Below, in pieces: positions 21,266 through 33,437 of a stretch of DNA of 64,000 bases (positions are counted from its first letter, which is position 1; each line of letters starts with the position of its first letter). Source of the DNA: Pyxidicoccus parkwaysis (lineage in GTDB: Bacteria; Myxococcota; Myxococcia; Myxococcales; Myxococcaceae). Position numbers and translations under genes: made by a program. The DNA lies in the NCBI RefSeq assembly GCF_017301735.1, contig NZ_CP071090.1, positions 12,879,001 through 12,943,000 on the forward strand. Reading direction: 5' to 3'. The notes under the pieces are model-generated. The model saw only the letters and a list, made by a program, of their open reading frames with translations. It was not told the DNA's origin and searched no databases.

Positions 21266-21284
21266 GAATATGCTCGAGCCCTCC

Positions 21285-22304
21285 ATGGCTCAGACACCTC
21301 CGCCGAATCCCTCTCAGCAGCTCCTGGAACACATCTCCAGCTATTGGATTTCCCAGATCATCGGTGTGGTCGCGCGACTTGGCCTCGCGGACCTGCTCGC
21401 GGGTGGTCCTCTTTCGAGCGATGCGCTGGCGCCACGGGTAGGAGCCAGCCCGGATGGGCTGTTCCGGCTGATGCGCGCGGGGGTGGTCGCAAGCCTCTTC
21501 ACGGAGGTGTCTCCCCGTACATTCACACTCACCCCTCTGGGGGCCTGCCTCCGGACGGAGGTGCCCGGCTCGATGCATGACATGGCCATCATGATGACGG
21601 CCCCAGGCCATTGGCGGCCCTGGGGAGACCTCTTCACTGCCGTGCAGACAGGGCGCTCCACGGCCCGAGGAGCGCTGGGCGTCGACCTCTGGGAGCACTA
21701 CCAGAAGAACCCGGAGGAGGCCTCGCACTTCGACCGTGCGATGGGCAGCTTCTCCAGCTTCGTCGCCACGGAAGTGGCACGACTCTACGATTTCTCAACT
21801 CATGCCCGCGTGGCCGATGTCGGGGGCAGCCAGGGCGTGTTGCTTGCCGCCGTGCTCCGTGCTCATCCCTCCTGTCGAGGCATCCTCTTCGACCTGCCGC
21901 ACGTCATCGACGGAGCCCGGGCCCAGGTGGAGGCCGAGGGGCTGAGCCAGCGGATGGACCTGGTGGCGGGGAGCTTCTTCGAGCCAGTCATTCCCGCTGC
22001 GGAGGCCTACCTCCTCAAGCACATCCTTCATGACTGGGACGACGCCTCGTCAACCGCCATCCTCCGGCAGATTCATCACGCCGCACCGCCGGGAGCCCGG
22101 CTGGTTGTCGTCGAGATGGTGATGCCGGAAAGCGGGGAGCCTTCGCGCACGGCCTTCATCGACCTCAACATGCTCGTGCTCGCGGATGGACGCGAGCGCA
22201 CGGCCCGTGAGTACGAGACGCTGCTCACCAGCGCCGGCTGGGCACTGGAGCGCATCACTCCCTCCCCGAGCGGCGTGAGCCTCCTCGAGGCACGCAAGCG
22301 CTGA
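21285..22304 (+). CDS. SAM-dependent O-methyltransferase (family 2, CrtF/hydroxyindole-type)
   Basis: 339 residues from the ATG at 21285 (or 344 from the ATG at 21270). The N-terminal 100 residues are the winged-helix dimerisation domain of this family (ISQIIGVVARLGLADLLAGG, LFRLMRAG). The SAM-binding fold starts at VADVGGSQGVLLA with the acidic residue in ILFDLPHVI; the general-base region is LLKHILHDWDD, where the His is the catalytic base in plant-type and bacterial O-methyltransferases. It therefore probably methylates a hydroxyl on a small molecule; the substrate is unknown and no biosynthetic genes lie nearby. Followed 29 bp later by a YbjN-like gene. Confidence 0.9.
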   Translation: MAQTPPPNPSQQLLEHISSYWISQIIGVVARLGLADLLAGGPLSSDALAPRVGASPDGLFRLMRAGVVASLFTEVSPRTFTLTPLGACLRTEVPGSMHDMAIMMTAPGHWRPWGDLFTAVQTGRSTARGALGVDLWEHYQKNPEEASHFDRAMGSFSSFVATEVARLYDFSTHARVADVGGSQGVLLAAVLRAHPSCRGILFDLPHVIDGARAQVEAEGLSQRMDLVAGSFFEPVIPAAEAYLLKHILHDWDDASSTAILRQIHHAAPPGARLVVVEMVMPESGEPSRTAFIDLNMLVLADGRERTAREYETLLTSAGWALERITPSPSGVSLLEARKR

Positions 22305-22333
22305 GGGACCCACGCGCGTCGAAGGGCGAGTCC

Positions 22334-22783
22334 ATGGACAGGCCATTGCCAGTGCTACCGCCGCATCCCACGCTGTACCTCGCGGACGCTGGCGCGCTCG
22401 CAAGCTACCTGCGCGCGCAGGGGAGGCGTCATCGTGTGCGGCAGGACCGCGTCGTCATCTCGCTCGGTGTTGGAGAGTTCTCTGACGCCACGCTCGACGT
22501 CTTCTGGCTCGACGACCAGGTGCGGTTCAATGTGATTGCCGCGCTCGACATCTCCTCCGCGGACCTCGCGCAGGTCGCCCTCGCGGCCGAGCGGGTGAAT
22601 GAGGAGATAGGGTTTCCGGTGTGGCGGGTGCTGCCGATGCTCTCCGCGACGTACACGGTCACCCTCGACCACGAGGGGAGGCTCTCGAGCCGGGTGCTCG
22701 AGTACGCAATCGCGCTGCTGCGCGATGCGCTCGTGCGCGATCAGCCCGTGTTCCGTGCGCAGCCCGGGGTGGTCCCGCCGTGA
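22334..22783 (+). CDS. YbjN-like protein (type III chaperone-like fold)
   Basis: 149 residues, no signal or membrane segment. The order of strands and helices (RVVISLGVGEF, VRFNVIAAL, then helix ADLAQVALAAERVNEEIGF, then VWRVLPML and TYTVTLDHEG, then a C-terminal helix) matches the YbjN/secretion-chaperone-like fold, in which small dimeric proteins bind partner polypeptides. It begins 29 bp after the methyltransferase and may be in its operon. Assignment is by pattern and remains tentative. Confidence 0.6.
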   Translation: MDRPLPVLPPHPTLYLADAGALASYLRAQGRRHRVRQDRVVISLGVGEFSDATLDVFWLDDQVRFNVIAALDISSADLAQVALAAERVNEEIGFPVWRVLPMLSATYTVTLDHEGRLSSRVLEYAIALLRDALVRDQPVFRAQPGVVPP

Positions 22784-22885
22784 TTGCCCGGGCCAGTTCC
22801 TTCACGTACGACAGCACTCGCCTCCTGCCCGCCGCGGCCTGGCGCTCCTTGTCCGCGTCGCGACGAGGATGCGAGGCTGGGCGCC

Positions 22886-23326
22886 ATGTCCGGGAATGAT
22901 TCGAAGCAGAACGGGGACGACGCTCTCGAGCGCGCGGAGTTCGAGCGCGCCGAGGAGGAGCTCGAACGCTCGCTGCGAATCAAGCCGTCGAAGCTGATGA
23001 CGCCTCCGAAGCCAATACCCGTGATGAGCAAGATCCACTTTCACGGGTATCCGCTCATCTGGCTGGGTGAGGACGCGTTTGTCTACGTCCATTTCCTCGT
23101 CGGCGAGCAAAGGCTCGACAAGCCACTCGACGTGACGTGGACTTCGCTCGACCCGGGTGTCCTCTCGATTCGGGAGACAGGGCGCCAGGCGCAATCCGTG
23201 ATGGCGCGTCTCGTCGGCGCGTCCCCCGGAACCACCAGGGTCGTCGCGACGACGCAAGAAGGGCACCGCGAGGAGCTGGAAGTCCGCGTCGTCGATCGCG
23301 ACAGCATCGAAATCCAGTGGTTTTGA
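22886..23326 (+). CDS. Small protein with a BIG2-like Ig domain
   Basis: 146 residues from the ATG at 22886. The first 45 residues are charged and probably helical (ALERAEFERAEEELERSL). Residues about 55-146 read as an Ig-like BIG2 domain (LDVTWTSLDPGVLSI, GTTRVVATTQEGHREELEVRVVD), a fold usually found in surface proteins. There is no signal peptide, which is odd for this fold, so it may be cytoplasmic or exported by another route. An earlier in-frame start at 22784 would overlap nothing but gives a low-quality N-terminus. Confidence 0.7.
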   Translation: MSGNDSKQNGDDALERAEFERAEEELERSLRIKPSKLMTPPKPIPVMSKIHFHGYPLIWLGEDAFVYVHFLVGEQRLDKPLDVTWTSLDPGVLSIRETGRQAQSVMARLVGASPGTTRVVATTQEGHREELEVRVVDRDSIEIQWF

Positions 23327-23332
23327 GGTCGT

Positions 23333-23521
23333 GCCGCCCACATTGGAAAAGCAACAGCAGACATTCAATCCGTGAGTTGCGCGGAGTTGACTGTCAATCA
23401 GCGCCGTCCATCCGGGACGCTTTGTATGCTCCGCGCATAGCGGGTCCAGCTCATTGGATGAATTGATGAGTCTGTCCGTGATGTAGCTGAGAGCGCTGGC
23501 GAGTCCGGTGATGGGCGGCAT
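23333..23521 (-). pseudogene. Possible truncated 5' gene fragment with a strong ribosome binding site
   Basis: Minus-strand ATG at 23521 is preceded by AAAGGAG at ideal spacing and opens a frame of about 63 plausible residues (PPITGLASALSYITDRLI, SSNELDPLCAEHTK) before running antisense into the end of the BIG2 gene. The good ribosome binding site suggests that this was the start of a real gene now truncated. The remaining part of 23522-23628 holds only the presumed promoter of the neprosin gene. Confidence 0.3.
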
Positions 23522-23628
23522 GCACTCCTTTCGATTCCGGCTTCGCCGCTGCCTCAAACGCTGAGCACGCTGAGGGCACGCTCCTGTGCTTCTCAGCAAC
23601 CGTCGCAGGTGTACGAGAGGAGCCGTCC

Positions 23629-24654
23629 ATGTCGAGAGCTGGCTTGTTTCTGTCGATGTTTCTCATCGGGTGTGTCGAGCCGGAGCCGCTCGGCGAACCT
23701 GCGAGCGATGTCCGCTCGCAGGTCGTCGCAGGTACGTCGGAGGTGGAGCTCGCGCTCGCGCCTTGGGAATACCACTGCGAGATGATGACGGAGGCCGCAC
23801 GCGCCGCCGTGCCTCCGCCTCCCCCCAGCATCGAGAAGGCCGCATCGGCCCCCCACGTGCGCGCTGTCTGCCCGCCGGGTCAGGTGCCGTTCTACCATCA
23901 AGCGGAGCTCCGGACGCTGAAGGCCGGTCCGCCGTTGTCCCCCGGGCTGAAAGGGACGGCTGGCTCGGCCGCCGCGCAGCCGCTGGCGGGAGCGTATTGG
24001 TACGCCGGAGTGATGAGGCCCACGGACGCGTTGAGCCAGAGCGGCGTCGGAGCGTCAATCCTGTTCTCGAACCCGGCGGTGTACGACCAGAGCGACATGG
24101 TGACATCCCAGATGTCCATCGTCCGTGGCGCCAACTACCACCTGGTGGAGATGGGCCTGCGAAAGTTCTGGGACGCCTTCCCGCGACTGATGATTTCCCA
24201 GTGGAGCTACGGCCAGTTCAACGACGCCGCCGGATTCGTCCGAGTCCACGGCGTCTACGCGCCTGGGATGCCGCTCTCCAACTATTACGGATACGCGGTC
24301 CAACAGTACATCCGTTATGACAACGGCAACTGGTGGATCTGGTTCAACGATGCCTGGGTCGGCTACTTCCCCGGCTCGCTCTGGAGTGGCCAGTTCACCT
24401 CTGGCGACATGGCGCATTTCTATGGCGAGGTCTACTCGGCGCAGAGCCGGGTCCCGCCGCTTACCGATATGGGCACGGGGCAGTTCTCCGGGACCTGGGG
24501 TACCGCCTACATGCAGGGGATGTGCACGCACAGCGCGGGCGCCGACTGCTACTACCTCACCGACGCCTGGCGTTCCGAGACCAACGCCGCGTATTACTCA
24601 CTCTCGTATTGGAATGGCTCGTATATGGAGTTCGGTGGTAACGGCGGCGGCTGA
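23629..24654 (+). CDS. Neprosin-domain lipoprotein (putative glutamic prolyl endopeptidase)
   Basis: 341 residues. N-terminal lipoprotein signal with lipobox LIGC at residues 12-15. Residues about 120-341 show the neprosin (DUF239) pattern: FSNPAVYDQSDMVTSQMSIV, RVHGVYAPG, NWWIWFNDAWVGYFPGSLW, HFYGEVYSA, TDMGTGQF, and a C-terminal Cys pair (MCTHSAGADC). Neprosins from plants are glutamic peptidases acting after proline, and candidate catalytic Glu residues are in LVEMG and YGEVY; I cannot confirm them without alignment. Bacterial members are uncommon but known in predatory and soil bacteria. Lipidation suggests an outer-membrane, possibly surface-exposed, protease. Confidence 0.75.
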   Translation: MSRAGLFLSMFLIGCVEPEPLGEPASDVRSQVVAGTSEVELALAPWEYHCEMMTEAARAAVPPPPPSIEKAASAPHVRAVCPPGQVPFYHQAELRTLKAGPPLSPGLKGTAGSAAAQPLAGAYWYAGVMRPTDALSQSGVGASILFSNPAVYDQSDMVTSQMSIVRGANYHLVEMGLRKFWDAFPRLMISQWSYGQFNDAAGFVRVHGVYAPGMPLSNYYGYAVQQYIRYDNGNWWIWFNDAWVGYFPGSLWSGQFTSGDMAHFYGEVYSAQSRVPPLTDMGTGQFSGTWGTAYMQGMCTHSAGADCYYLTDAWRSETNAAYYSLSYWNGSYMEFGGNGGG

Positions 24655-24698
24655 CATCCAGCGCCGGCAGGCGGCGAGCCACGCGTGTACACGGTGCT

Positions 24699-24714
24699 GG
24701 GGGCGGAGGCCCCC
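24699..24714 (+). terminator. Short GC-rich hairpin after the neprosin gene
   Basis: GGGGGC (24699-24704) and GCCCCC (24709-24714) with a 4-base loop, 45 bp after the stop codon. Nothing else is supported in 24655-24960 except a GAGGGAGG ribosome binding site for the next gene. Confidence 0.4.
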
Positions 24715-24960
24715 GCCGTCGCGCGCTGGCTCGAGGCGTCATCACGGCGCATCGGCTGGGCCTTTCCATGCGTCAGTGACCGTCACACCCACTCCGCGGG
24801 CCGAAGTGGAATGTGTCGCCACTCATGCATACCGGGTTTCCACTATTCGAATTGCAGGATGCGCGACACGAGGCATCGCAACGGTGCATTTTTGCCTCTT
24901 GATTGTTGAGGTAACTGAGAGTCAAGAGCATGGTGGGGCGCGGTTCTCGAGGGAGGCATT

Positions 24961-25275
24961 GTGATGACGATGAAAGTGACCTTCATGGGCTTCGGGCTGC
25001 TGGCCCTGGCCGTGGGCTGTGGAAACACTCCGCCGGAGGAGTCGGCAACGCCGCCGGACTCCCAGGTCCAGGCCTCACCCGCCCGGGACATGCCGTCCGA
25101 GCGGGAACTGGCCGCGACGCGCACCGCGGCTTCCGTGACGGCGGTTCCCGTGCGGTACGTGGTCGACCCTGGCACGACGACCCGGCTCTCCGTCTCCGCA
25201 GGTGCGGAACGGGCGAATTCCTCATCACCTTCCGAGCCCCTGACTCCAGGCGCGGCACGGCGCTCCCTGAAGTAG
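24961..25275 (+). CDS. Short lipoprotein of unknown function
   Basis: 104 residues; starts at GTG 24961 or the adjacent ATG 24964, both served by GAGGGAGG. Lipobox AVGC at about residues 17-20, followed by a Pro/Ser/Thr-rich, low-complexity chain with no recognisable domain. It ends 30 bp before the DUF1036 gene and is likely co-transcribed with it. Confidence 0.65.
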   Translation: MMTMKVTFMGFGLLALAVGCGNTPPEESATPPDSQVQASPARDMPSERELAATRTAASVTAVPVRYVVDPGTTTRLSVSAGAERANSSSPSEPLTPGAARRSLK

Positions 25276-25305
25276 TGCACTCCGTCTGGGATTGGGGAAA
25301 CTCAC

Positions 25306-25722
25306 ATGTCGACGAGAAAGCTTGCGATGGCGTTCGCGGTCGCCGCCGGGCTCGGCTTCGCCGGGCCGGCCCACGCCTGGGTGCAGTTCTGCAATGGAAC
25401 CAGCGTCACCATCTGGACCGCCTATTCCTGGCGTGACACCGGCTGCATTCCCGAGGATGGCAGCAGTTGGAGGAAGGCGGGCTGGTGGGAGCTGGCGCCG
25501 GGACAGTGCAAGATTGTCTATGGCCCCGCCATCTCGAACTCGATCTCCTACTACTACGCCGAGGGCGGTGGGCTGGTCTGGGCGGGCCCCTACTTCACGT
25601 GTACGCCGTGGAGCGCCTTCGATTGGTGCGACAACACCTGCAACACCAACTCGCGCAACCTGGGCTACCGGGAGCTCAACACGGGCGGCGCCCAGAACTA
25701 CACGCTGACCTTCAACCCGTAA
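25306..25722 (+). CDS. Secreted DUF1036 protein
   Basis: 138 residues with a Sec signal peptide cleaved after AHA (residue about 24). The mature domain matches the DUF1036 pattern: VQFCNGTSVTIWTAYSW, then GWWELAPGQCKIVY, then YYYAEGGGLVWAG, with conserved Trp, Tyr and Cys. The family is periplasmic or secreted and of unknown biochemical role. Ribosome binding site is weak; the preceding lipoprotein stop is 30 bp upstream. A clear hairpin terminator follows at 25774. Confidence 0.85.
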   Translation: MSTRKLAMAFAVAAGLGFAGPAHAWVQFCNGTSVTIWTAYSWRDTGCIPEDGSSWRKAGWWELAPGQCKIVYGPAISNSISYYYAEGGGLVWAGPYFTCTPWSAFDWCDNTCNTNSRNLGYRELNTGGAQNYTLTFNP

Positions 25723-25773
25723 CGTTCCGAGCCGTCCCCGCCCAGGTCGACGCGGGGCCGCCAGTCGCCCCCG

Positions 25774-25796
25774 CCGGGGCTGCGTTTCAGCCCCGG
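25774..25796 (+). terminator. Terminator after the DUF1036 gene
   Basis: CCGGGGCTG (25774-25782) pairs perfectly with CAGCCCCGG (25788-25796) around a 5-base loop, 51 bp past the stop. The rest of 25797-26035 shows no gene; a short coding-like tail (ASGQRSSYVFCN before a TGA near 25898) may be a relic. Confidence 0.65.
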
Positions 25797-26035
25797 ACGC
25801 GCGCCGCGAGCCGCGGAGCCGCCACGTCCGCAAGCATCCCCGGGACGTACCCGACGCTCGCCTCCGGGCAGCGCAGCAGCTACGTCTTCTGCAATTGACG
25901 CGTCGCATGGGCTGAAGGGCCCCAGCACTGGCCGTGGGGCCCGCAGCTTGTGATTGAACATGCGATTGCATGTGAGGGGTTGTGTGTGAGAGATTGCGCC
26001 TCCGGGACTTTCTAACTGAGGTGCCGGGAGGGCGT

Positions 26036-28078
26036 ATGAGCTACCTGAGCCTGCCACGCTTGACCTTCAGCGGACTGTTCGAGGGCGACGTCAACACAGT
26101 CAACAACGACGTCCGCAATTACAGCAGCTCCACCTTCGAGCCGCGCTTCCAGGAGGCCTGGGTCCAGCATCCGGACGGAAAGACAACCTATAACGGTTGG
26201 TGGAACCCTGATGGCGGCAACACGTTCCGGCTGCTGGACTGCGCCGTTTCCGGCGCCGTCGGGCCGGACGGTGCGGCGGCGGGCGACGTCGCCCTGTCGC
26301 TGCGCATCGCCACGCAGACGGCACGCACGGCGGCCAAGCTGGTGGACCTGGACCCGCAATACCAGTTCGCGTCGGGCATCTGGGGCCTGCGCCTCGAGCT
26401 GACGGACGGGAAGCGGACGCTGATGGCGGGGACCTTCCAGCCTGCCTGCTTCCGCGACGTCTATTTCGGCCGGCTGACCGACAAGGTGACGGGCCAGCCC
26501 GTAGGCGGCAGCCCCGGTGCCTCGGCGCGCTTCACGGGCGTGCTGACCGAGCTCGTCTGGCATGAGGGGGCCGCCGCCTCCCCCGTGCTGGCGGCCTTCA
26601 AGGCGTCCGCGGAGAAGAACCAGGGCCGGCTGTCGCTGAGCCTGATGACCTATGGGTACAGCAAGAGCCGGGGGACGACGGACTTCACCTTTGGCCGGGT
26701 GCTGGGCACGCTGGCGCCCTGGTTCTCGGGTGAGCCGCTGACCTTCGCGCCGGGCCGCCGCTTCTCCCCCTCCATCGCGGACGCGGCCAGCGGGCCGCCC
26801 TCGGCGTCGCAATACAATATCGGCTACCTGAACGCCGCGTTTGCGCCCGGCAACACCAGCCTGGTCGTGGACTTCGGCATGTCCCTGCCGCTCTGGCTGC
26901 TGCCGTCGGGCGACAAGAACATCGTGGACGGACAGAGAATCGTGCCACAGGACCTGGGCCCCATCCGTGTGGTGGTGCTGACCCGGGCCGACACGGTCGG
27001 GGCCGACGGGACCATCAGCACCCCCATCATGGAGGGGGCGGCCGTGGCTGACAGCGACTATGTCGTGATTGGCACGCTCACCGACTATGGCGGGGCCTGG
27101 CTCGCCAGTACGGGCGGCGTCGTCAACATGGCCGTGCCGGAGGCAGCGCGGGCCCTGGTCGGCGACCATCCGCTGGCCCTGCTCATCCAGGTGAAGGGCG
27201 CTTGGACCGTGGGCATCCGCGAAAGCAATGGCGGGCAATGGGCGCGAGCCGATGATTTCGTGCAGCGCCTGGACGCGCCGGTGAAGGGCTGGGCCTCCAG
27301 CACCGTCACCCTTCATGCCATGCGCTACGGCGCGCCCTTCGCGGGGGCCAGCCTCGCCGTCTCCCTGTCCGCGCCCGACGACACCAGCGGTGGTGCCGGT
27401 CCGGACGAGGTGAAACCCCCACAGGTGAAGATCCCCAAAATCAACGTGCCGGCCGACACGGTGCGCTTCGACGCCTCCCTCACCGCCGATGACAGGGGCG
27501 TGGCCGTCCTCACCTATTACGCGGCCGACCCTGGCAATCCGCGCGAATACATCGACGGCCAGATATACGAAATCAATTACGCCCTGGCAGGCGGCGGGCA
27601 GTCGCCCCTGCCGATGTTCGAACAGGTGGCCGTGCATGTCCGCGACGGGTTCGACCCGCCGGCTACGCCCAGCTGGGAAACGGACGTCGCGCCCGTGCTG
27701 GTGCAGTACGGCAATCTCTACCCCATCATGAGCCGGGGCCTGTTCAGCTTCTCCGACTACAACACAGTCGTACAGCATGCGCGGCTGCTCTATCTGGCCT
27801 TCACCCGGCCGCCGGAGGACCCGAACTACATGCCGGCCACGCGTGACCTGTCGGCGGGCAAGCTGCGCATGATTGTCAATTGGCTGGCGACATTCCTGCC
27901 AGGCGCGCCCGGCGATTATGGGGCGCTGCCTGTGGCCAAGGTGGGAGCCACCCTGGAACCGTCGGCTCCGCCGCCCGTGCTGGGAGATGTCGCCGTTCGT
28001 CGCGGCAGTCCCGGTCTGCGCAAGGCCATCCGCAGCATGGGCCACGGCACGCCCGTGCCTCCAGGCGTGAAGGCGTGA
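26036..28078 (+). CDS. VioB N-terminal-half-like protein
   Basis: 680 residues from the ATG at 26036 (GGGAGG upstream). No signal peptide. The start SYLSLPRLTFSGLF followed by DVNTVNND matches the pattern that opens VioB (short strand, PR.xF.G, then N..T.N.D), and the end carries YPIMSRGLFSFSDY and NYMPATRDLSAGKLRMIVNW, which parallels VioB's central FMSDKVFSLAD and YYMPSTRELS region. VioB, RebD and StaD are large oxidative enzymes that dimerise imines of aromatic alpha-keto acids in bisindole synthesis. Here the chain stops where the ferritin-like half of VioB would start, and that half is encoded next. Homology is recalled rather than computed, so the reaction is not assigned. Confidence 0.65.
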   Translation: MSYLSLPRLTFSGLFEGDVNTVNNDVRNYSSSTFEPRFQEAWVQHPDGKTTYNGWWNPDGGNTFRLLDCAVSGAVGPDGAAAGDVALSLRIATQTARTAAKLVDLDPQYQFASGIWGLRLELTDGKRTLMAGTFQPACFRDVYFGRLTDKVTGQPVGGSPGASARFTGVLTELVWHEGAAASPVLAAFKASAEKNQGRLSLSLMTYGYSKSRGTTDFTFGRVLGTLAPWFSGEPLTFAPGRRFSPSIADAASGPPSASQYNIGYLNAAFAPGNTSLVVDFGMSLPLWLLPSGDKNIVDGQRIVPQDLGPIRVVVLTRADTVGADGTISTPIMEGAAVADSDYVVIGTLTDYGGAWLASTGGVVNMAVPEAARALVGDHPLALLIQVKGAWTVGIRESNGGQWARADDFVQRLDAPVKGWASSTVTLHAMRYGAPFAGASLAVSLSAPDDTSGGAGPDEVKPPQVKIPKINVPADTVRFDASLTADDRGVAVLTYYAADPGNPREYIDGQIYEINYALAGGGQSPLPMFEQVAVHVRDGFDPPATPSWETDVAPVLVQYGNLYPIMSRGLFSFSDYNTVVQHARLLYLAFTRPPEDPNYMPATRDLSAGKLRMIVNWLATFLPGAPGDYGALPVAKVGATLEPSAPPPVLGDVAVRRGSPGLRKAIRSMGHGTPVPPGVKA

Positions 28079-28094
28079 GAGGGAGGACCCTGCC

Positions 28095-29132
28095 ATGCTG
28101 AAAATCAATCCCAGATATGTCGCCCAGGTGCGAGCCGCCGCAGGCCCCGAGGACCTGCACGGGATGGTGCAGAGCGCCATCGAGCTGGAACATGCGACGA
28201 TTCCCACCTATCTGTGCGCCTATTTCACCCTCAAGCGCGGGACCAACCAGCCCATCGCCGAGATCATCCGTTCCGTGTTGATCGAGGAGATGCTGCACAT
28301 GTCCATCGCGTCGAACCTGCTGATTGCGCTGGGCGGCCATCCCTCCATCGACAACCCGGCCTTCGTGCCGAAATATCCCGGCCCTCTGCCCATGGGCATC
28401 GGCGACGGGCTGATTGTCCCTCTGGCCCGATGCTCCATCGAGCTGGTGCGCGATGTCTTCATGAAGATTGAGGAGCCGGTGGACCCCCTGCCGCTGAAAG
28501 CGTTCGCGGCGGAGACGCCCAGCTACTCCACCATCGGCGAGTTCTATGCGGCCATCGCCGACAAGCTTCGTGAATTCGGACCGTCCGCCTTTTCGCGGCC
28601 GTCGGGCCCGCAGATGCTGAACAACAACTGGTTCCCCGCCGACGAGCTGTTCAGGATTCATGATGTCGACAGCGCCTGCTCCGCCATCGACATCATCGTG
28701 CGGCAGGGCGAGGGCACGAAAATCAGCCCCGTGGACCTGGAGGGTGGCATTGCCCACTACTACCGGTTCGAGCAGATTGTGAAAGGCCGGCGGCTGGTGG
28801 CCGCGCCCAAGGCTGAACACGGCTATGCCTTCGCGGGCGCGCCGCTGACGCTGGACCTGCGCAATGTCTGGAACATGCAGGAGAACCCGGACCCCGACAA
28901 ACTGCCGCCCGGCTCGCGGGCGCGGCAGGTCTCGCTCCAGTTCGCCGCCGCCTACACCAGCCTGCTGCGCGCCCTGCACGAGGCCTTCAACGGCAAGCCA
29001 GACGCCATCAACCAGGCCATGGGCCTCATGTACGAACTGCGTCTGCTGTCGCAGCAGGTGCTGGAGACGCCGTTGCCCGACTCGCCGGGCCAGTCCACCG
29101 GCCTCTCCTTCCGCTACCAGCCGTCCATCTGA
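28095..29132 (+). CDS. Ferritin-like protein, VioB C-terminal-half type
   Basis: 345 residues, starting 16 bp after the preceding stop with GGGAGG as ribosome binding site. The helical core shows IELEHATIPTYLCAYF, then LIEEMLHMSIASNLLIALGG (ExxH iron-binding pattern), and a later helix GIAHYYRFEQIVKGRR; these are the candidate metal-ligand helices of the ferritin-like domain found in VioB-type enzymes. Together with the 680-residue partner the total length (1025) is close to that of VioB (about 1000), so the pair looks like a split version acting as a complex. No VioA-type amine oxidase is nearby, so a violacein-like product is not implied. Cytoplasmic. Confidence 0.75.
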   Translation: MLKINPRYVAQVRAAAGPEDLHGMVQSAIELEHATIPTYLCAYFTLKRGTNQPIAEIIRSVLIEEMLHMSIASNLLIALGGHPSIDNPAFVPKYPGPLPMGIGDGLIVPLARCSIELVRDVFMKIEEPVDPLPLKAFAAETPSYSTIGEFYAAIADKLREFGPSAFSRPSGPQMLNNNWFPADELFRIHDVDSACSAIDIIVRQGEGTKISPVDLEGGIAHYYRFEQIVKGRRLVAAPKAEHGYAFAGAPLTLDLRNVWNMQENPDPDKLPPGSRARQVSLQFAAAYTSLLRALHEAFNGKPDAINQAMGLMYELRLLSQQVLETPLPDSPGQSTGLSFRYQPSI

Positions 29133-29162
29133 CCCGTACAACGACAGAAGGGAAGAACCTCC

Positions 29163-30224
29163 ATGCGCGCATCCCTGATGCCGGCTTGCGTCGCCGGCGC
29201 CCTGCTGCTGGCCGGTGCCGCCCTGCCGGCGGCGGCGGATACCGACAGCGGCCCGGTCAGCCCCGTCTATTCCACACGCGGCATCCACAACCCCGCCGCC
29301 TATAGCAATTGCGATCCGGCCGACTGCCTGGTCGGCCGCGCCCAGGGGGAGCCGAGCGATCCGCTCTATCCCGTCTACTGGACGGCCAGCTGGAACATGT
29401 ATGTCGTCACCAACCATTACGACAAGTATTCACCGCCCTATGACGGCAAGCCGCCAGCAGCACTGGTGGAGGGCAAGGATTACACGGTCTCCAAGGGGTG
29501 GACCTATTACGACAGCACCTGGACGGGCGGCACCGGCACCGGTGCCATGATGGAGTATTACGAGAAGAAGTGCCTGCCCATCTTCCCCATCGACAACAGC
29601 TTCTCCTGTTCCTTCATCTCCCTGGGCAACCGGGCCTTCTTCGTCACGTATGACGACCGGCCCAACTGGATGCCCAAGGTCTGTCTGTTCTCGCCCCTGA
29701 ACCACCCGCCGCGCCGCAACTTCATCCAGCACCTGCCCTACAGCAAGGGAGACAGCCAGCGCATCTCCGGCAATGTCGTCCAGGGCTATTCGGTGTGGGT
29801 CAGCCGCAAGACGGGGGCGGTGACCCAGGTGGGCGTCTCGCCGGACCGCACCCAGGATGGCGACATCATGTTTGGCTATGGCTTCAACACTGCGTATACG
29901 CCGGACGCCACTGACAAGAACGCCGCTCCCTACCGCCATCCGCAGAGCTTCTATTTCTCAGGCTTCCCAGGGTACCCGAAGGCTCTGTTGAAGAAGCCCG
30001 TCTATCCATTCGCGCCCATCGTCAGCCAGAACTACACCAGCTTCTCCATGCTGAAGCCGGACCCGGCCAAGACCTGGAACCAGGTGGCCGACGCGATGGT
30101 GAACAACCCGCCGCCCTGCCAACTGTTTGAGCCGCCCAAGAACGCCAAGGCCGCTGGGGTCAAGGAGGAGGGCACGGCTGAACAGCCCGCGCCCGGCACC
30201 TGGGGCGACATCCCTGGTAAGTGA
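29163..30224 (+). CDS. Secreted protein of unknown function, third gene of the VioB-like operon
   Basis: 353 residues, 30 bp after the ferritin-like gene with GGGAAG as ribosome binding site. Sec signal peptide with cleavage after AAA-D (residue about 26). The mature protein is aromatic-rich (many Tyr and Trp) with repeated phrases such as YPVYWTASWNMYVV, YYDSTWTGG, GYSVWVSRKTGAV and MMEYYEKKCLPIF, two probable disulphides and a Pro-rich C-terminus. No family recognised. Its fixed position after two cytoplasmic VioB-half proteins suggests that the operon product or its substrate is handled outside the cytoplasm, but that is inference. Confidence 0.7.
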   Translation: MRASLMPACVAGALLLAGAALPAAADTDSGPVSPVYSTRGIHNPAAYSNCDPADCLVGRAQGEPSDPLYPVYWTASWNMYVVTNHYDKYSPPYDGKPPAALVEGKDYTVSKGWTYYDSTWTGGTGTGAMMEYYEKKCLPIFPIDNSFSCSFISLGNRAFFVTYDDRPNWMPKVCLFSPLNHPPRRNFIQHLPYSKGDSQRISGNVVQGYSVWVSRKTGAVTQVGVSPDRTQDGDIMFGYGFNTAYTPDATDKNAAPYRHPQSFYFSGFPGYPKALLKKPVYPFAPIVSQNYTSFSMLKPDPAKTWNQVADAMVNNPPPCQLFEPPKNAKAAGVKEEGTAEQPAPGTWGDIPGK

Positions 30225-30264
30225 CGATGGGCGGAATGGAGGCTCTGTTGCTGGTGCAGTTTCG

Positions 30265-31242
30265 CTACCCGCGAATGAGCCCCGTCATGATTGCCGCGGA
30301 CAGCGCCACCGCGCCTGCGACCACGACCAGGAAGGTCCGCTCTGCCCGTTGCGTCGGCTGCCCGTGGTGCAGCATCACCCTGCGAATGCCAGCGGCGCCG
30401 TGGACTCCAAGCGCGACCACGGCGAGGAAGTAATAGGGCGCAAGGCGCGCGCTCCATGGGTCTGTCAGCAGGCCCTCGGAGGCCCAGGCCCAGCCCGTAT
30501 CGACGTGCCTCAGCAGGCGTGCGCGAAGGACCGCCGAGACGTGCGAGAGGAAGAACATCGCGAGGTAGAGCGCCGAGGCGGCCTGCAATGAGTCGAGCCA
30601 GCTGACTGTGTATGGAAGCTTGCGCCGCAACAGGATGAGACCGCTGAGCATCTGGAAGGTGATGCTTCCCAGCAACACAGCTTCGATGAGCGGGTGCCGA
30701 TACACCAGCCGGAGGGTGTGCATGATGGCGGTATGCCGCTCTCCACCCCACAGTGCGCCGACATGATTGACCAGATGGGCTGCGGCAAAGCAGGTCACCA
30801 GCACCGCTGAAACGCCGTGCGCGAACGCCAGTCGCCCCTGCGCCGGCTGCGCCCCTTCGCTGGGGCGATGCGACGGCCGCTCCCAGAACGCGATGCAGGC
30901 GGACACAAGCCAGAGCACGAGCCACACGTGCAGTCCCTTGAACGGAACGGCCCGCTGAAAATCCAGCCAGCCTCCGAGAAGGCTGTAGAGCGGAGGAGTT
31001 CCGACCACGGCGAAGGCAATCCACCGCGAACGGGGATGGAGGCGGTGGTCCAGTCGGTGCGCGATGAGCAGCCCGATGACTGGAACCCCCATCGAGATGA
31101 CGAGAAAGATGGGACCGAGCGCCGGCCCGGACCAGATGAGGACCGGGTAGGCAAGCGCCGCAAGGGCGGGGAGGGTGCGGCTGAGACGGCGGGTGACTGT
31201 CGATGGCAGGCCGTCGAGGGAGGGGGCCGTGGCGACGTTCAA
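30265..31242 (-). CDS. Integral membrane protein, cytochrome-b-like
   Basis: 325 residues from a TTG at 31242 (no ATG or GTG gives a better start). About eight membrane segments. Conserved-looking histidines sit in or near helices (AAHLVNHVG, FFLSHVSAVL, VALGVHGAAG), the spacing typical of di-haem four-helix cytochromes such as succinate dehydrogenase anchors, so haem b binding is possible. It is divergent from the MocR-type regulator at 31333, with 90 bp between starts, which suggests control by that regulator. Substrate unknown. Confidence 0.7.
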   Translation of the reverse strand: MNVATAPSLDGLPSTVTRRLSRTLPALAALAYPVLIWSGPALGPIFLVISMGVPVIGLLIAHRLDHRLHPRSRWIAFAVVGTPPLYSLLGGWLDFQRAVPFKGLHVWLVLWLVSACIAFWERPSHRPSEGAQPAQGRLAFAHGVSAVLVTCFAAAHLVNHVGALWGGERHTAIMHTLRLVYRHPLIEAVLLGSITFQMLSGLILLRRKLPYTVSWLDSLQAASALYLAMFFLSHVSAVLRARLLRHVDTGWAWASEGLLTDPWSARLAPYYFLAVVALGVHGAAGIRRVMLHHGQPTQRAERTFLVVVAGAVALSAAIMTGLIRG

Positions 31243-31289
31243 GGTGGCTCTCGCTTTGAGTGCTGTCCGAGATGACCGTAGCGTCCGGC

Positions 31290-31332
31290 TGGACTATCCA
31301 TTGGGTCCAATTCCGAAGAATCGAGTGGACCA
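31290..31332. promoter_or_regulatory. Candidate MocR operator
   Basis: Three half-site-like words occur just before the regulator start: TGGACTA (31290-31296), GGGTCCA (31303-31309) and TGGACCA (31326-31332); the second and third are near mirror images. MocR-type proteins bind repeated sites between themselves and a divergent target, which fits this place. Not proven. Confidence 0.4.
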
Positions 31333-32754
31333 ATGCTGAGCCTTCCTCCGCGCCAGTCGGGCACGACCCTCACGCAGTGGCTGTACGAGGAGCTGCGGCG
31401 GGCGATGCTTTCCGGCCGGCTCCGGCGCGGTGCCTCGCTTCCGACGACGCGCGCCCTCGCGGCGGAGTACGGAATCTCCCGAAGAATCGTGGTCGAGGTG
31501 TTCGAGCGCCTGCGTGATGAAGGGTACCTGCACGCGCGGGTCGGGGTGGGCACCCGGGTCAGCGAGAATCTTCCGGAGGATTCCCTGGCCGGTCCTGTCT
31601 CGCCCTCTCGCCCGAGGCGAGCAATCAATCCACTCGAGAACCTCGCGCAGCACGCGGTGCACGGCTGGCCGGTCCGGCCGTTCCGCGCCTTCGAGCCGGC
31701 CTTGTCCGAGTTCCCGGTCGAGCTCTGGGCGCGGCTCACTTCACGCTGCATGCGCCGAGCGGGTGGGGCCATCCTCGCGGGCGGAGATTCCGCCGGGCTG
31801 CGTGCGCTGCGCGAGGCCATCGCCGAATACCTCGGCGCCTCACGCGGCGTGGCGTGCTCGGCCGACGACATCATCGTGACCTCGGGGGCGCAGCAGGGGC
31901 TCGACCTGCTGGCGAGGGTGCTGTTGCGACCTGACGATTCGGTGTGGGTCGAGGACCCCGCGTACCCCGATGCAGTCGAAATCTTCCGGCTGACCGGCGC
32001 GAAGGTCGTTCCCGTCGCGGTGGATGCGCATGGCATCGACCCGAAAATCGGACGCGCCCGGTGCCCGCGGCCGAAGGCCATCTACCTGACCCCGGCCCAC
32101 CAGTTTCCTCTCGGCATGAGCTTGCGGCTCGACCGTCGCCTCGAGCTGCTGCAGTGGACGCGCAAGGAGCAGACCGTCGTCATCGAGGATGACTACGACA
32201 GCGAGTTCCGCTTCTCGGGGAAGCCCCTTCCGGCGCTCAAGGGGCTCGGCGCGTCCGAGCACGTGTTCCTGGTTGGGACCTTCAGCAAGTGTCTCTTTCC
32301 CTCGCTTCGCCTCGGCTACATCGTGGCCCCGCAGCGGTGGCGCGACCCGCTGCTCCGGCTGCGCCGACAGGTCGAGCGCTATCCGCCCGGGCTCCCCCAG
32401 CTCGTGCTCGCCTCGTTCCTCGCGGAGGGACACTTCGCCAGGCACCTGCGACGAATGCGCGAGCTGTACGCGGGCAGACTCGCGCTGCTTCGGAGCGAAG
32501 TCGGCTCGCGGCTGGGCGGGTTGCTACAGATTCCGGACGTCGAAGCCGGACTCAACACGCCCGCATATCTCCTGGGCTCGATGACCTCTCGTGAGGCGGT
32601 CGAACGCGCGCGCCGCAGGGAGCTCGAGGTCTGGCCGTTGGAGCGCTATGCGCTCGCCCGGAAGGACCTTCGCGGACTGTTGCTGGGCTTCGCGGCGTTG
32701 AGCGACCGGCAGATTCGCAAGGGTGTGACGGAGCTGGCGCGCGCCCTGGGATAG
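31333..32754 (+). CDS. MocR/GntR-type regulator with aminotransferase-like domain
   Basis: 473 residues. Residues about 10-80 are a GntR-type winged helix (YEELRRAMLSGRLRRGASLP, TTRALAAEYGISRRIVVEVFERL). The rest is a fold-type I PLP-dependent aminotransferase-like domain with the PLP-binding Lys319 in TFSKCLFPSLRLGY and the DDYDSEFR motif where PLP-binding Asp/Tyr lie. Proteins of this class sense PLP or amino-compound ligands and control PLP metabolism or uptake genes. The divergent membrane protein is the likely target. I do not assign pdxR because no PLP-synthesis gene is adjacent. Confidence 0.9.
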   Translation: MLSLPPRQSGTTLTQWLYEELRRAMLSGRLRRGASLPTTRALAAEYGISRRIVVEVFERLRDEGYLHARVGVGTRVSENLPEDSLAGPVSPSRPRRAINPLENLAQHAVHGWPVRPFRAFEPALSEFPVELWARLTSRCMRRAGGAILAGGDSAGLRALREAIAEYLGASRGVACSADDIIVTSGAQQGLDLLARVLLRPDDSVWVEDPAYPDAVEIFRLTGAKVVPVAVDAHGIDPKIGRARCPRPKAIYLTPAHQFPLGMSLRLDRRLELLQWTRKEQTVVIEDDYDSEFRFSGKPLPALKGLGASEHVFLVGTFSKCLFPSLRLGYIVAPQRWRDPLLRLRRQVERYPPGLPQLVLASFLAEGHFARHLRRMRELYAGRLALLRSEVGSRLGGLLQIPDVEAGLNTPAYLLGSMTSREAVERARRRELEVWPLERYALARKDLRGLLLGFAALSDRQIRKGVTELARALG

Positions 32755-32757
32755 GAA

Positions 32758-32802
32758 CCGCGTGGCAGACGGGCCCCGGTGTCGGGACCGCCTTCCACGC
32801 GG
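32758..32802. terminator. Inverted repeat between convergent genes
   Basis: CCGCGTGG (32758-32765) pairs with CCACGCGG (32795-32802), with a GC-rich 29-base interior that can itself fold. It lies between the regulator stop and the stop of the LysM gene. Confidence 0.35.
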
Positions 32803-32828
32803 GGCGAGGTGCTGCTGGGGGCTGTCGG

Positions 32829-33437
32829 TCAGTAGCCGACGTAGCCGCTGCCGTTGCTGAGTCCCTTGATGCCGGGGACGTTGGACACCGAGCCGTAGCG
32901 CGCGATGGAGTAGCGGACGCCCGCGATGATGTTGTCCACCGGGTTGCGGATGTTGTCGTGGCCGGGGAGCTTGTACGAGTCGAACGTCGGCTGGATGGTC
33001 TGCATCAGGCCGATGGAGGGCGTGCCCTTCTTCGCGTTGGAGTCCCAGAGGTTGATGGCGTTCGGGTTCCCGCTCGACTCGTGCTGGATGATCTTCGCGA
33101 TGTCCTGGGGGTTCATCTTGTCCGCCGGGACGCCGTTCGCCTTGAGGATGTCCATCGCCTGCTTGATCCAGTCACCGACCTGGCCCTTGGGCACGTCACC
33201 CGTGGCCTGCGTCCCGGAGGTCTTGTCAGTGCCGCCCTTCAGGTCCGGGCCCTTGGCGCTGGTGCCCCCCGCCTGGAACTCGTCCTTGCTGCCCGGAATC
33301 TTGAGCTTCGCGCCCGCGAAAATGAGGTCCGCGTTCTTGATGTTGGGGTTCGCCTTCATCAGCGAGCCCACGTCCGTCTTGAAACGCTTCGCGAGGCTGC
33401 TCAGCGTGTCGCCAGACTTGATCCGATAGTCACTCAT
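32829..33437 (-). CDS. LysM plus lytic-transglycosylase-like protein
   Basis: 202 residues. Residues 3-48 form one LysM domain (YRIKSGDTLSSLAKRF, LMKANPNI, AGAKLKIPG), which binds peptidoglycan. After a Gly/Thr-rich linker, residues about 85-200 form a small SLT-type domain; Glu in IIQHESSGNP is the expected catalytic acid and SIGLMQTIQPTF is the family's second motif. So it should cleave glycan strands. It lacks a Sec signal peptide, so release may need another route, as with phage tail or effector-type lysozymes. An inverted repeat lies upstream of it. Confidence 0.88.
   Translation of the reverse strand: MSDYRIKSGDTLSSLAKRFKTDVGSLMKANPNIKNADLIFAGAKLKIPGSKDEFQAGGTSAKGPDLKGGTDKTSGTQATGDVPKGQVGDWIKQAMDILKANGVPADKMNPQDIAKIIQHESSGNPNAINLWDSNAKKGTPSIGLMQTIQPTFDSYKLPGHDNIRNPVDNIIAGVRYSIARYGSVSNVPGIKGLSNGSGYVGY

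What the first reader, a model, noticed from the sequence alone, without database searches (positions are those of the whole stretch)
26036..30224. Split VioB-like enzyme with a secreted third partner
The first gene starts and ends like the N-terminal two thirds of VioB (LPRLTFSG near the start, NYMPATRDLS near the end) and the second gene is the ferritin-like remainder. VioB, RebD and StaD are single chains. The split pair lies in an operon with an aromatic-rich secreted protein and without an amine oxidase, so it might make a non-indole product or act in trans with another oxidase.
Basis: partly seen in the sequence, partly recalled or inferred. Interest (0 to 1): 0.75.

Follow-up and report, generated by a model that had tools for sequence, protein, structure and literature searches.

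The report
Two-chain VioB-like enzyme plus exported partner
Three neighbouring genes in a bacterium that is probably a myxobacterium encode a two-part relative of the enzyme that builds the violacein skeleton, plus a third protein that looks exported; similar sets in some other bacteria sit beside a known metabolite-export gene cluster, which suggests that they make and finish an unknown aromatic compound.

Summary
Gene A (26036-28078, 680 aa) weakly resembles the N-terminal part of VioB; gene B (28095-29132) is a PF12902 ferritin-like protein; gene C (29163-30224) has an export-type start and is aromatic-rich. Gaps of 16 and 30 bases suggest one operon. It is not a unique "split VioB": of 20 fetched loci with A at 200 bits or more, 14 have B as a separate next gene, 1 is fused and 5 have no PF12902 gene. 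A and B distances track each other (r = 0.86, 0 of 2000 permutations). B keeps a diiron-type ligand set. C is a conserved unnamed family: 14 of 15 C loci carry A or an A-like gene, 10 of 15 ebo genes (metabolite export, known from scytonemin); the window's own genome has no EboE. In a genus that is probably Pseudomonas, 7 of 7 C loci share one layout: ebo, two VioB-N-like genes, two CxxCH proteins and C. Best reading: a two-chain VioB/RebD-type oxidase makes an aromatic product and C acts on it outside. Substrate, haem and product are untested. A fails the VioB equivalog test (23 against 1250 bits). New variant of a known kind.

The parts
26036..28078 (+). Gene A: VioB-N-like protein, 680 aa, no signal peptide seen by eye; conserved MSYLxxPRLxFxG start and NYMPxTRDLS near the end
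   Evidence: TIGR04492 E 1.4e-5; 15-member alignment; model pLDDT 73.9, pTM 0.76; profile homology to A-like proteins of ebo loci
28095..29132 (+). Gene B: PF12902 ferritin-like protein, 345 aa; diiron-type ligand set E32, E65, H68, E126, E206, H221 (assignment inferred)
   Evidence: E 1.1e-63; PDB 3hl1; residues invariant in 15 A-linked members
29163..30224 (+). Gene C: aromatic-rich protein with an export-type N-terminus, 353 aa, five invariant Cys and invariant H42, H181, H190; no CxxCH
   Evidence: 15-member alignment; hydrophobic N-terminus, 13.0% aromatic; no solved relative at E <= 1
28079..28094 (+). A-B gap, 16 bases, with a purine-rich ribosome-site-like stretch
   Evidence: bases printed; no test of function
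29133..29162 (+). B-C gap, 30 bases, with a purine-rich ribosome-site-like stretch
   Evidence: bases printed; no test of function

Best explanation
A and B are the two subunits of a VioB/RebD-type oxidase working in the cytoplasm. B carries a ferritin-like diiron site. A supplies the VioB N-terminal part, where by analogy with haem-dependent VioB/RebD/StaD a haem might sit. Together they would oxidise, and probably couple, an arylpyruvate imine or similar aromatic intermediate made by an amino-acid oxidase encoded elsewhere. C is exported and acts on or handles the product outside the cytoplasmic membrane, much as periplasmic ScyE is thought to finish scytonemin after ebo-dependent export. 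Shown by computation: homology, gene order, A-B co-divergence, a natural A-B fusion, the conserved residue set, the export-type N-terminus of C and the recurrent ebo neighbourhood at other loci. Inferred: that A and B bind each other, metal and haem, substrate, coupling chemistry, and C's role. How the product would leave a cell without ebo genes is unknown.
For: VioB order of the two halves. 10 of 15 A members and 10 of 15 B members match TIGR04492 at E <= 1, best 1.7e-7 and 1.4e-5. The natural fusion L043 has A and PF12902 in one chain and matches TIGR04492 at 3.2e-8 in 2 stretches. A-B distance correlation r = 0.86, 0 of 2000 permutations as high, 13 loci. E32, E65, H68, E126, E206, H221 are invariant in 15 of 15 A-linked B proteins. 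Gene order A-B-C in the window, in L039 of the same family, in two Alphaproteobacteria and in a cyanobacterium. C lies inside the ebo cluster in Mycetohabitans. Seven of 7 C loci in the genus of G325 have EboA-F matches, two VioB-N-like genes, two CxxCH proteins and C, and in the two loci tested (L123, L128) a ScyD/ScyE-like neighbour, E 3.6e-15 and 1.9e-16, both below its cut-off. [quoted passage not shown] VioB and StaD/RebD are haem-dependent (PMC5577590 and PMC10851217, passages).
Against: VioB similarity is weak and local: 23 bits for A, 17 for B. No characterised VioB, RebD or StaD sequence could be aligned. No haem ligand could be named; A has no invariant His. The 15 rows of A3 and A1 were chosen because they have B; five more fetched A or A-like loci (L042, L044-L047) have none, further A-like hits (for example in G017, G024, G025, G027, G035, G039) were not examined for neighbours, and L123-L129 have A-like genes without PF12902 in the stretch fetched. 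The window genome has no EboE, and 10 of the 15 A3 loci have no ebo match in the stretch fetched. A-C and B-C distance correlations are weak: r = 0.37 (126 of 2000 permutations as high) and r = 0.27 (467 of 2000), 6 loci; C's nearest relative is the lone C of G002 (66%), not the MAG (57%) that holds the nearest A and B. The fold search of A gave only a beta-sandwich resemblance at about 397-540.
Confidence: 0.5

Rival explanations
1. A-B makes a soluble bis-indole or bis-aryl pigment in the classical VioA/VioB or RebO/RebD manner with an amine oxidase in trans; C is a co-transcribed exported protein with an unrelated job.
For: VioB order of the halves; C is missing beside A-B at loci such as L005, L038, L040, L041, L059, L061, so A-B can work without C.
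Against: C recurs beside A or A-like genes at 14 of 15 C loci over several phyla; no amine oxidase among ten of the eleven genes around the operon.
Confidence: 0.2
2. A-B is an oxidase that modifies a monomeric aromatic or prenylated ebo-type metabolite and does not couple two units; VioB coupling is a derived use of the fold.
For: The ebo cluster of L004 encodes a UbiA prenyltransferase and a DHQ-synthase-like enzyme; E. [quoted passage not shown]
Against: None decisive. The products of E. coli carrying EDB may be shunt products, and the link from EDB to the loci seen here rests on inferred Pseudomonas identity.
Confidence: 0.2
3. A-B is an iron- or redox-stress module: B binds iron or removes peroxide, A is a beta-rich scaffold, and there is no metabolite.
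For: Ferritin-like family; the A fold search shows only generic beta-sandwich matches.
Against: VioB similarity in both halves, ebo and ScyE-like neighbours at related loci, LodA/GoxA-annotated oxidase upstream in Mycetohabitans.
Confidence: 0.1

Closest known systems
VioB (TIGR04492), violacein pathway
   Same: N-terminal part and ferritin-like part match the profile in the same order; weak matches in both halves
   Different: Two chains; 23 bits against a cut-off of 1250; no VioA-type oxidase found among the genes scanned; partner C
RebD / StaD chromopyrrolic acid synthases
   Same: Haem-dependent enzymes that couple indolepyruvate imines (PMC10851217 and PMC3640393, passages; SpcD is listed there with 1123 aa); their kinship with VioB is recalled
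   Different: No sequence of either could be aligned here; their clusters carry a tryptophan oxidase and a P450 gene, neither identified among the genes scanned here
ebo cluster (EboA-F) and scytonemin ScyE
   Same: A-B or C lie in or beside ebo clusters in Pseudomonadota, Cyanobacteria and Bacteroidota
   Different: The window genome has no EboE; A, B and C are not ebo genes; C and ScyE were not compared with each other
EDB cluster of Pseudomonas fluorescens NZI7
   Same: Contains a full ebo cluster and non-ebo ORFs with signal peptides (PMC6282210, passage); L123-L129 have ebo genes plus proteins with export-type starts
   Different: Its primary papers are not held, so gene-by-gene identity with L123-L129 was not tested; L123-L129 have no PF12902 match in the stretch fetched
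Ferritin like protein, PDB 3hl1 (Caulobacter CC_0557, name recalled)
   Same: Same kind of domain as B (E 1.2e-8 single, 1.4e-23 profile)
   Different: Known here only as a solved chain; whether an A gene lies beside it was not examined

Membership tests
VioB equivalog (TIGR04492) | Whole-protein score above the curated cut-off of 1250 bits | tested here: not met
   A 23.1, B 17.0, fused L043 31.9 bits
VioB / RebD / StaD | Single chain holding N-terminal part and ferritin-like part | tested here: not met
   Two genes in the window; a fused form was seen only in L043 among 20 loci with A at 200 bits or more
VioB / RebD / StaD | PF12902 ferritin-like domain | tested here: met
   B, E 1.1e-63. 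That VioB, RebD and StaD carry PF12902 is recalled; only VioB's profile similarity to B was seen
VioB / RebD / StaD | Haem-dependent | not testable with these tools
   No haem motif known to me for the family; no PDB sequence matched A's profile at E <= 1
VioB / RebD / StaD | Clustered with a flavin amino-acid oxidase (VioA, RebO, StaO) | tested here: not met
   None among ten of the eleven genes called at 21270-33437; the rest of the window was not domain-scanned
VioB / RebD / StaD | Couples two arylpyruvate imines | not testable with these tools
   Needs enzyme assay
PF12902 ferritin-like | Score above Pfam gathering cut-off 22.3 | tested here: met
   215.5 bits
PF12902 ferritin-like | Diiron-type ligand set (four Glu, two His) | tested here: met
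   E32, E65, H68, E126, E206, H221 present in B and in 15 of 15 A-linked members; assignment as ligands is inference
ebo-linked system | ebo genes in the genome | tested here: not met
   No EboE (NF035939) match in G000; no ebo profile match in the window. The other five ebo genes were not sought genome-wide
EDB cluster | Gene content as published for NZI7 | not tested
   Primary papers not held
c-type cytochrome | CxxCH motif in C | tested here: not met
   No CxxCH in any of 15 C proteins

The most novel reading that the evidence does not exclude
A-B, and its relatives without B, are the unrecognised biosynthetic oxidases of many ebo systems. Cytoplasmic VioB-N-like enzymes make an aromatic intermediate, ebo proteins move it out, and exported partners (C, CxxCH haem-motif proteins, ScyE-like propellers) finish it. 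Single-chain VioB, RebD and StaD would then be a fused offshoot of this older two-gene enzyme.
Probability: 0.3. Interest if true: 0.75.

Novelty: new variant of a known kind. Interest (0 to 1): 0.58.

Why it matters
What ebo clusters handle outside scytonemin is open, and the paper that named ebo set the inserted non-ebo genes aside as beyond its scope (PMC5133447, section 12 part 1). Tying a VioB-type oxidase and a new exported family to ebo loci gives a concrete, testable hypothesis on what some of these clusters make, and offers a two-gene version of VioB/RebD chemistry whose subunits can be studied apart.

Tried and rejected
Structure of C: mean pLDDT only 44.8, so its fold search (no match at E <= 0.001) says nothing. 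Structure of A: pLDDT 73.9; the PDB look is filled by a beta-sandwich at about 397-540, so no function was read from it and the other parts of A are barely tested.

Idea that C is a cytochrome or a relative of the CxxCH proteins: no evidence for it (hhalign probability 0.5%; no CxxCH in 15 C proteins). Idea that PF12902 alone marks the system: rejected. In 398 Pseudomonadota genomes PF12902 matched in 17; of the 14 loci fetched only 2 have A; three weak ones (G244, G264, G380) were not fetched, and L083, L091 and L092 are short contigs where a neighbour could be cut off. Empty-site test in the genus: not possible, since on the one flank tried (30265-33437, DNA level) the listed matches in the other 26 genomes are short or partial, at most about 715 of 3173 bases (list cut). 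G116 as a C carrier: dropped, E 6.9e-4 over 89 residues. Promoter scan: 0 found, 0.5 expected; terminator-like sites: 5 found, 2.6 (sd 1.5) expected. Direction of evolution (fusion or fission) was not tested with a tree.

Bias to note: the 15 rows of A3 and A1 were picked for having both A and B. The Ebo, CxxCH, VTT and A2-like profiles were built from some of the same loci (L004, L039, L042-L046, L057, L058, L060, L061, L084, L097), so matches there are by construction, though ebo genes in L058, L060 and L061 are also named in the records and EboE in G195 and G325 was found with NF035939. L096 and L124-L129 are independent tests; L123 is the same genome as L097, and L080, L111, L116 are copies or near-copies. 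L092 and L093 were left out of the residue check.
Full report
What was checked. The three ORFs exist at the given coordinates. A is 26036-28078, B 28095-29132 and C 29163-30224; gaps of 16 and 30 bases with purine-rich stretches make one operon likely. A has no Pfam domain; its one NCBIfam match at E <= 1 is VioB TIGR04492, E 1.4e-5 over 66 residues. B is PF12902, E 1.1e-63, and also touches the VioB profile further along, E 9.8e-4, so both halves lie in VioB order. C has no match at E <= 1 in Pfam, NCBIfam or the PDB sequences but has a hydrophobic N-terminus and 13.0% aromatic residues.

The genome. PF12902 occurs at three places: the window; a second A-B pair at 10.52 Mb (L005) without C, since C occurs once in the genome; and a 500-aa PF12902 protein at 5.09 Mb beside a protein with a weak GoxA match (L006). 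In 96 genomes of the family, 15 match A or A-like proteins. Among the 27 same-genus genomes only G000 and G054 match, and G054's copy resembles the 10.52 Mb pair (L041 and L005), so the window's A-B-C looks like an accessory acquisition. Its nearest A and B found are in an alphaproteobacterial MAG (55% and 62%, next best 37% and 48%). C's nearest is a lone C in G002 of the same family (66%), then the MAG (57%).

The A-B pair. Of 20 distinct fetched loci with an A score of 200 bits or more, 14 have B as a separate next gene, L043 is fused, and L042 and L044-L047 have no PF12902 match in the stretch fetched (near-copies L080, L111, L116 not counted). The 15 loci with both parts were aligned for A and for B. 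A and B distances over 13 loci correlate at r = 0.86 with 0 of 2000 permutations as high. E32, E65, H68, E126, E206 and H221 are invariant in all 15 A-linked B proteins; of 13 PF12902 proteins without A that were checked, 12 keep all six and L088 has Q at the fifth. Four Glu and two His is the usual make-up of a ferritin-like diiron site (established knowledge). Ten of 15 A members and 10 of 15 B members match TIGR04492 at E <= 1, best 1.7e-7 and 1.4e-5; the scores printed (23.1 and 17.0 bits for the window, 31.9 for L043) are far below the cut-off of 1250. So the pair is a relative of VioB, not a VioB.

PF12902 is wider than the pair. In 398 Pseudomonadota genomes it matched in 17, 16 over the cut-off. 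Of 14 such loci fetched only G195 and G349 have A.

C. A 15-member alignment has five invariant Cys (C55, C137, C149, C174, C319) and invariant H42, H181 and H190. Surveys: 4 of 195 genomes of the window's phylum at E <= 0.001, one of them (G116) marginal; 3 of 398 Pseudomonadota; 1 of 385 Alphaproteobacteria, the centre itself; 7 of 84 in the genus of G325; 4 plasmid records; 0 phage records. These searches with C itself find all 15 aligned C loci (one of the two near-identical Mycetohabitans records is not counted). Fourteen of the 15 carry A or an A-like gene in the fetched stretch; the exception is L054 in G002, whose genome has A-B elsewhere (L040). Ten of 15 also carry ebo genes: L004, L057 (EboB and EboD only), L058 and L123-L129. 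Five do not: the window, L039, L054, L056 and L084.

The ebo link. In Mycetohabitans endofungorum A-B is followed by a 3-dehydroquinate-synthase gene (EboD), C, EboE, UbiA (EboC), EboA, TatD (EboB) and the phosphodiesterase (a second strain is). In strain B13 the same cluster has only a 62-aa frame left of C. In Aureibacter A-B precedes EboA, TatD, EboC, 3-dehydroquinate synthase, EboE and an alkaline-phosphatase-family gene. In Gloeothece A-B-C follows TatD and 3-dehydroquinate-synthase genes. Of the 15 A3 loci, 5 have ebo matches nearby. EboE was found in 3 of 398 Pseudomonadota: G195 (A-B-C present, but chosen for that), G325 (C and A-like present) and G381 (none of them). EboE was absent from G000 and from 11 relatives of its family or order; of the 13 genomes searched only G195 had it.

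The EDB-like layout. All 7 C loci in the genus of G325 run EboD-C-A-B-E-F, CxxCH protein, VioB-N-like protein of about 800 aa, C, second CxxCH protein, second VioB-N-like protein of about 600 aa. Both VioB-N-like sets are homologous to A nearly end to end: hhalign 99.9%, E 7.2e-31 over 554 columns, and 99.3%, E 7.3e-21 over 522 columns. The next gene, tested in two of the seven (L123, L128), is ScyD/ScyE-like, E 3.6e-15 and 1.9e-16, below the 80-bit cut-off. The genus is probably Pseudomonas: a neighbouring chemotaxis protein has its five best listed plasmid matches, of 39 records, in Pseudomonas; this is indirect. In six aligned CxxCH proteins the motif is invariant, and it is present in all 14 of the proteins.

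Literature. ebo proteins export the scytonemin monomer, which periplasmic ScyE is then posited to dimerise; the EDB cluster of P. fluorescens NZI7 contains a full ebo cluster plus ORFs with signal peptides (PMC6282210, passages). EDB was reported to convert tryptophan to indoles that repel C. elegans (PMC9655573, passages; the primary paper was not seen). The paper that named ebo left inserted genes unanalysed (PMC5133447, section 12 part 1) and has no occurrence of ferritin or VioB in its main text. In the held library none of the 19 papers holds both an ebo term and VioB, chromopyrrolic or ferritin-like. One search lists two papers that hold both the bare words ebo and ferritin-like (PMC5869019, PMC8532002); by title they concern stress survival and plant desaturases, and they were not opened. 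PF12902 beside lodA and lodB genes was reported in fungi (PMC4417212, passages). No claim of novelty beyond these searches is made.

Mechanism. The most likely working is a cytoplasmic two-chain oxidase (A-B) and an exported partner (C). That A and B bind each other is supported by fusion and co-divergence; metal in B by conserved residues; everything about haem, substrate and product is inference. A-C and B-C distance correlations are weak (r = 0.37 and 0.27, six loci), so C may be exchanged between systems, as its presence both with A-B and with the B-less EDB-like layout also suggests. In the window's host the missing EboE means that export is unexplained.

Verdict. New variant of a known kind; the ebo link is the interesting part.

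Noticed in passing
L006 6835-14931 (G000:C1 about 5.089-5.097 Mb): A 500-aa PF12902 protein is followed by a 462-aa protein with a weak GoxA match (NF038173 E 0.001), two further ORFs and a FAD-type protein by eye: a possibly split LodA/GoxA system with a ferritin-like partner, as reported for fungi.
   Followed up: partly
L005 8358-11319 (G000:C1 about 10.52 Mb): Second A-B pair in the same genome, A 34% identical to the window's A, no C beside it; a close relative is in G054 (L041).
   Followed up: partly
L097 12498-14387 (minus): VTT-domain membrane protein (PF09335) fused to a DHQ-synthase-like EboD; separate VTT genes lie near A or A-like genes in L039, L042, L043, L044, L047 and L084.
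   Followed up: partly
L044 6469-7908; L057 5448-6782; L097 1454-2746 and 6141-7391: Protein family without Pfam match where tested, export-type start by eye and one invariant CxxCH, paired with A-like proteins that lack PF12902; a relative in L113 lies beside a tyrosinase gene on a Sinorhizobium plasmid.
   Followed up: partly
L060 13802-13987: Remnant of C (62-aa frame) between EboD and EboE in Mycetohabitans strain B13; C is annotated as a full-length gene in strains B3 and B14.
   Followed up: partly
L115 4207-6936: Single-chain 909-aa PF12902 protein in a Rhizobium leguminosarum plasmid whose N-terminal part gave no A match at E 1e-5: another long form.
   Followed up: no
L042 5725-9264: A homologue without PF12902 neighbour, followed by a protein with an export-type start and weak, sub-threshold kelch matches.
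   Followed up: no
L058 2531-5592: LodA/GoxA family CTQ oxidase and a protein annotated as tryptophan 7-halogenase lie about 3.4 kb upstream of A-B, with a transposase gene between: a candidate amino-acid oxidase partner.
   Followed up: no
window 25306-25722: DUF1036 protein with an export-type N-terminus on the same strand, 313 bases before A; probably its own unit.
   Followed up: no
window 30265-31242 (minus): Membrane-type protein by eye with a sub-threshold Sdh_cyt match, convergent with C and 40 bases from its end.
   Followed up: no
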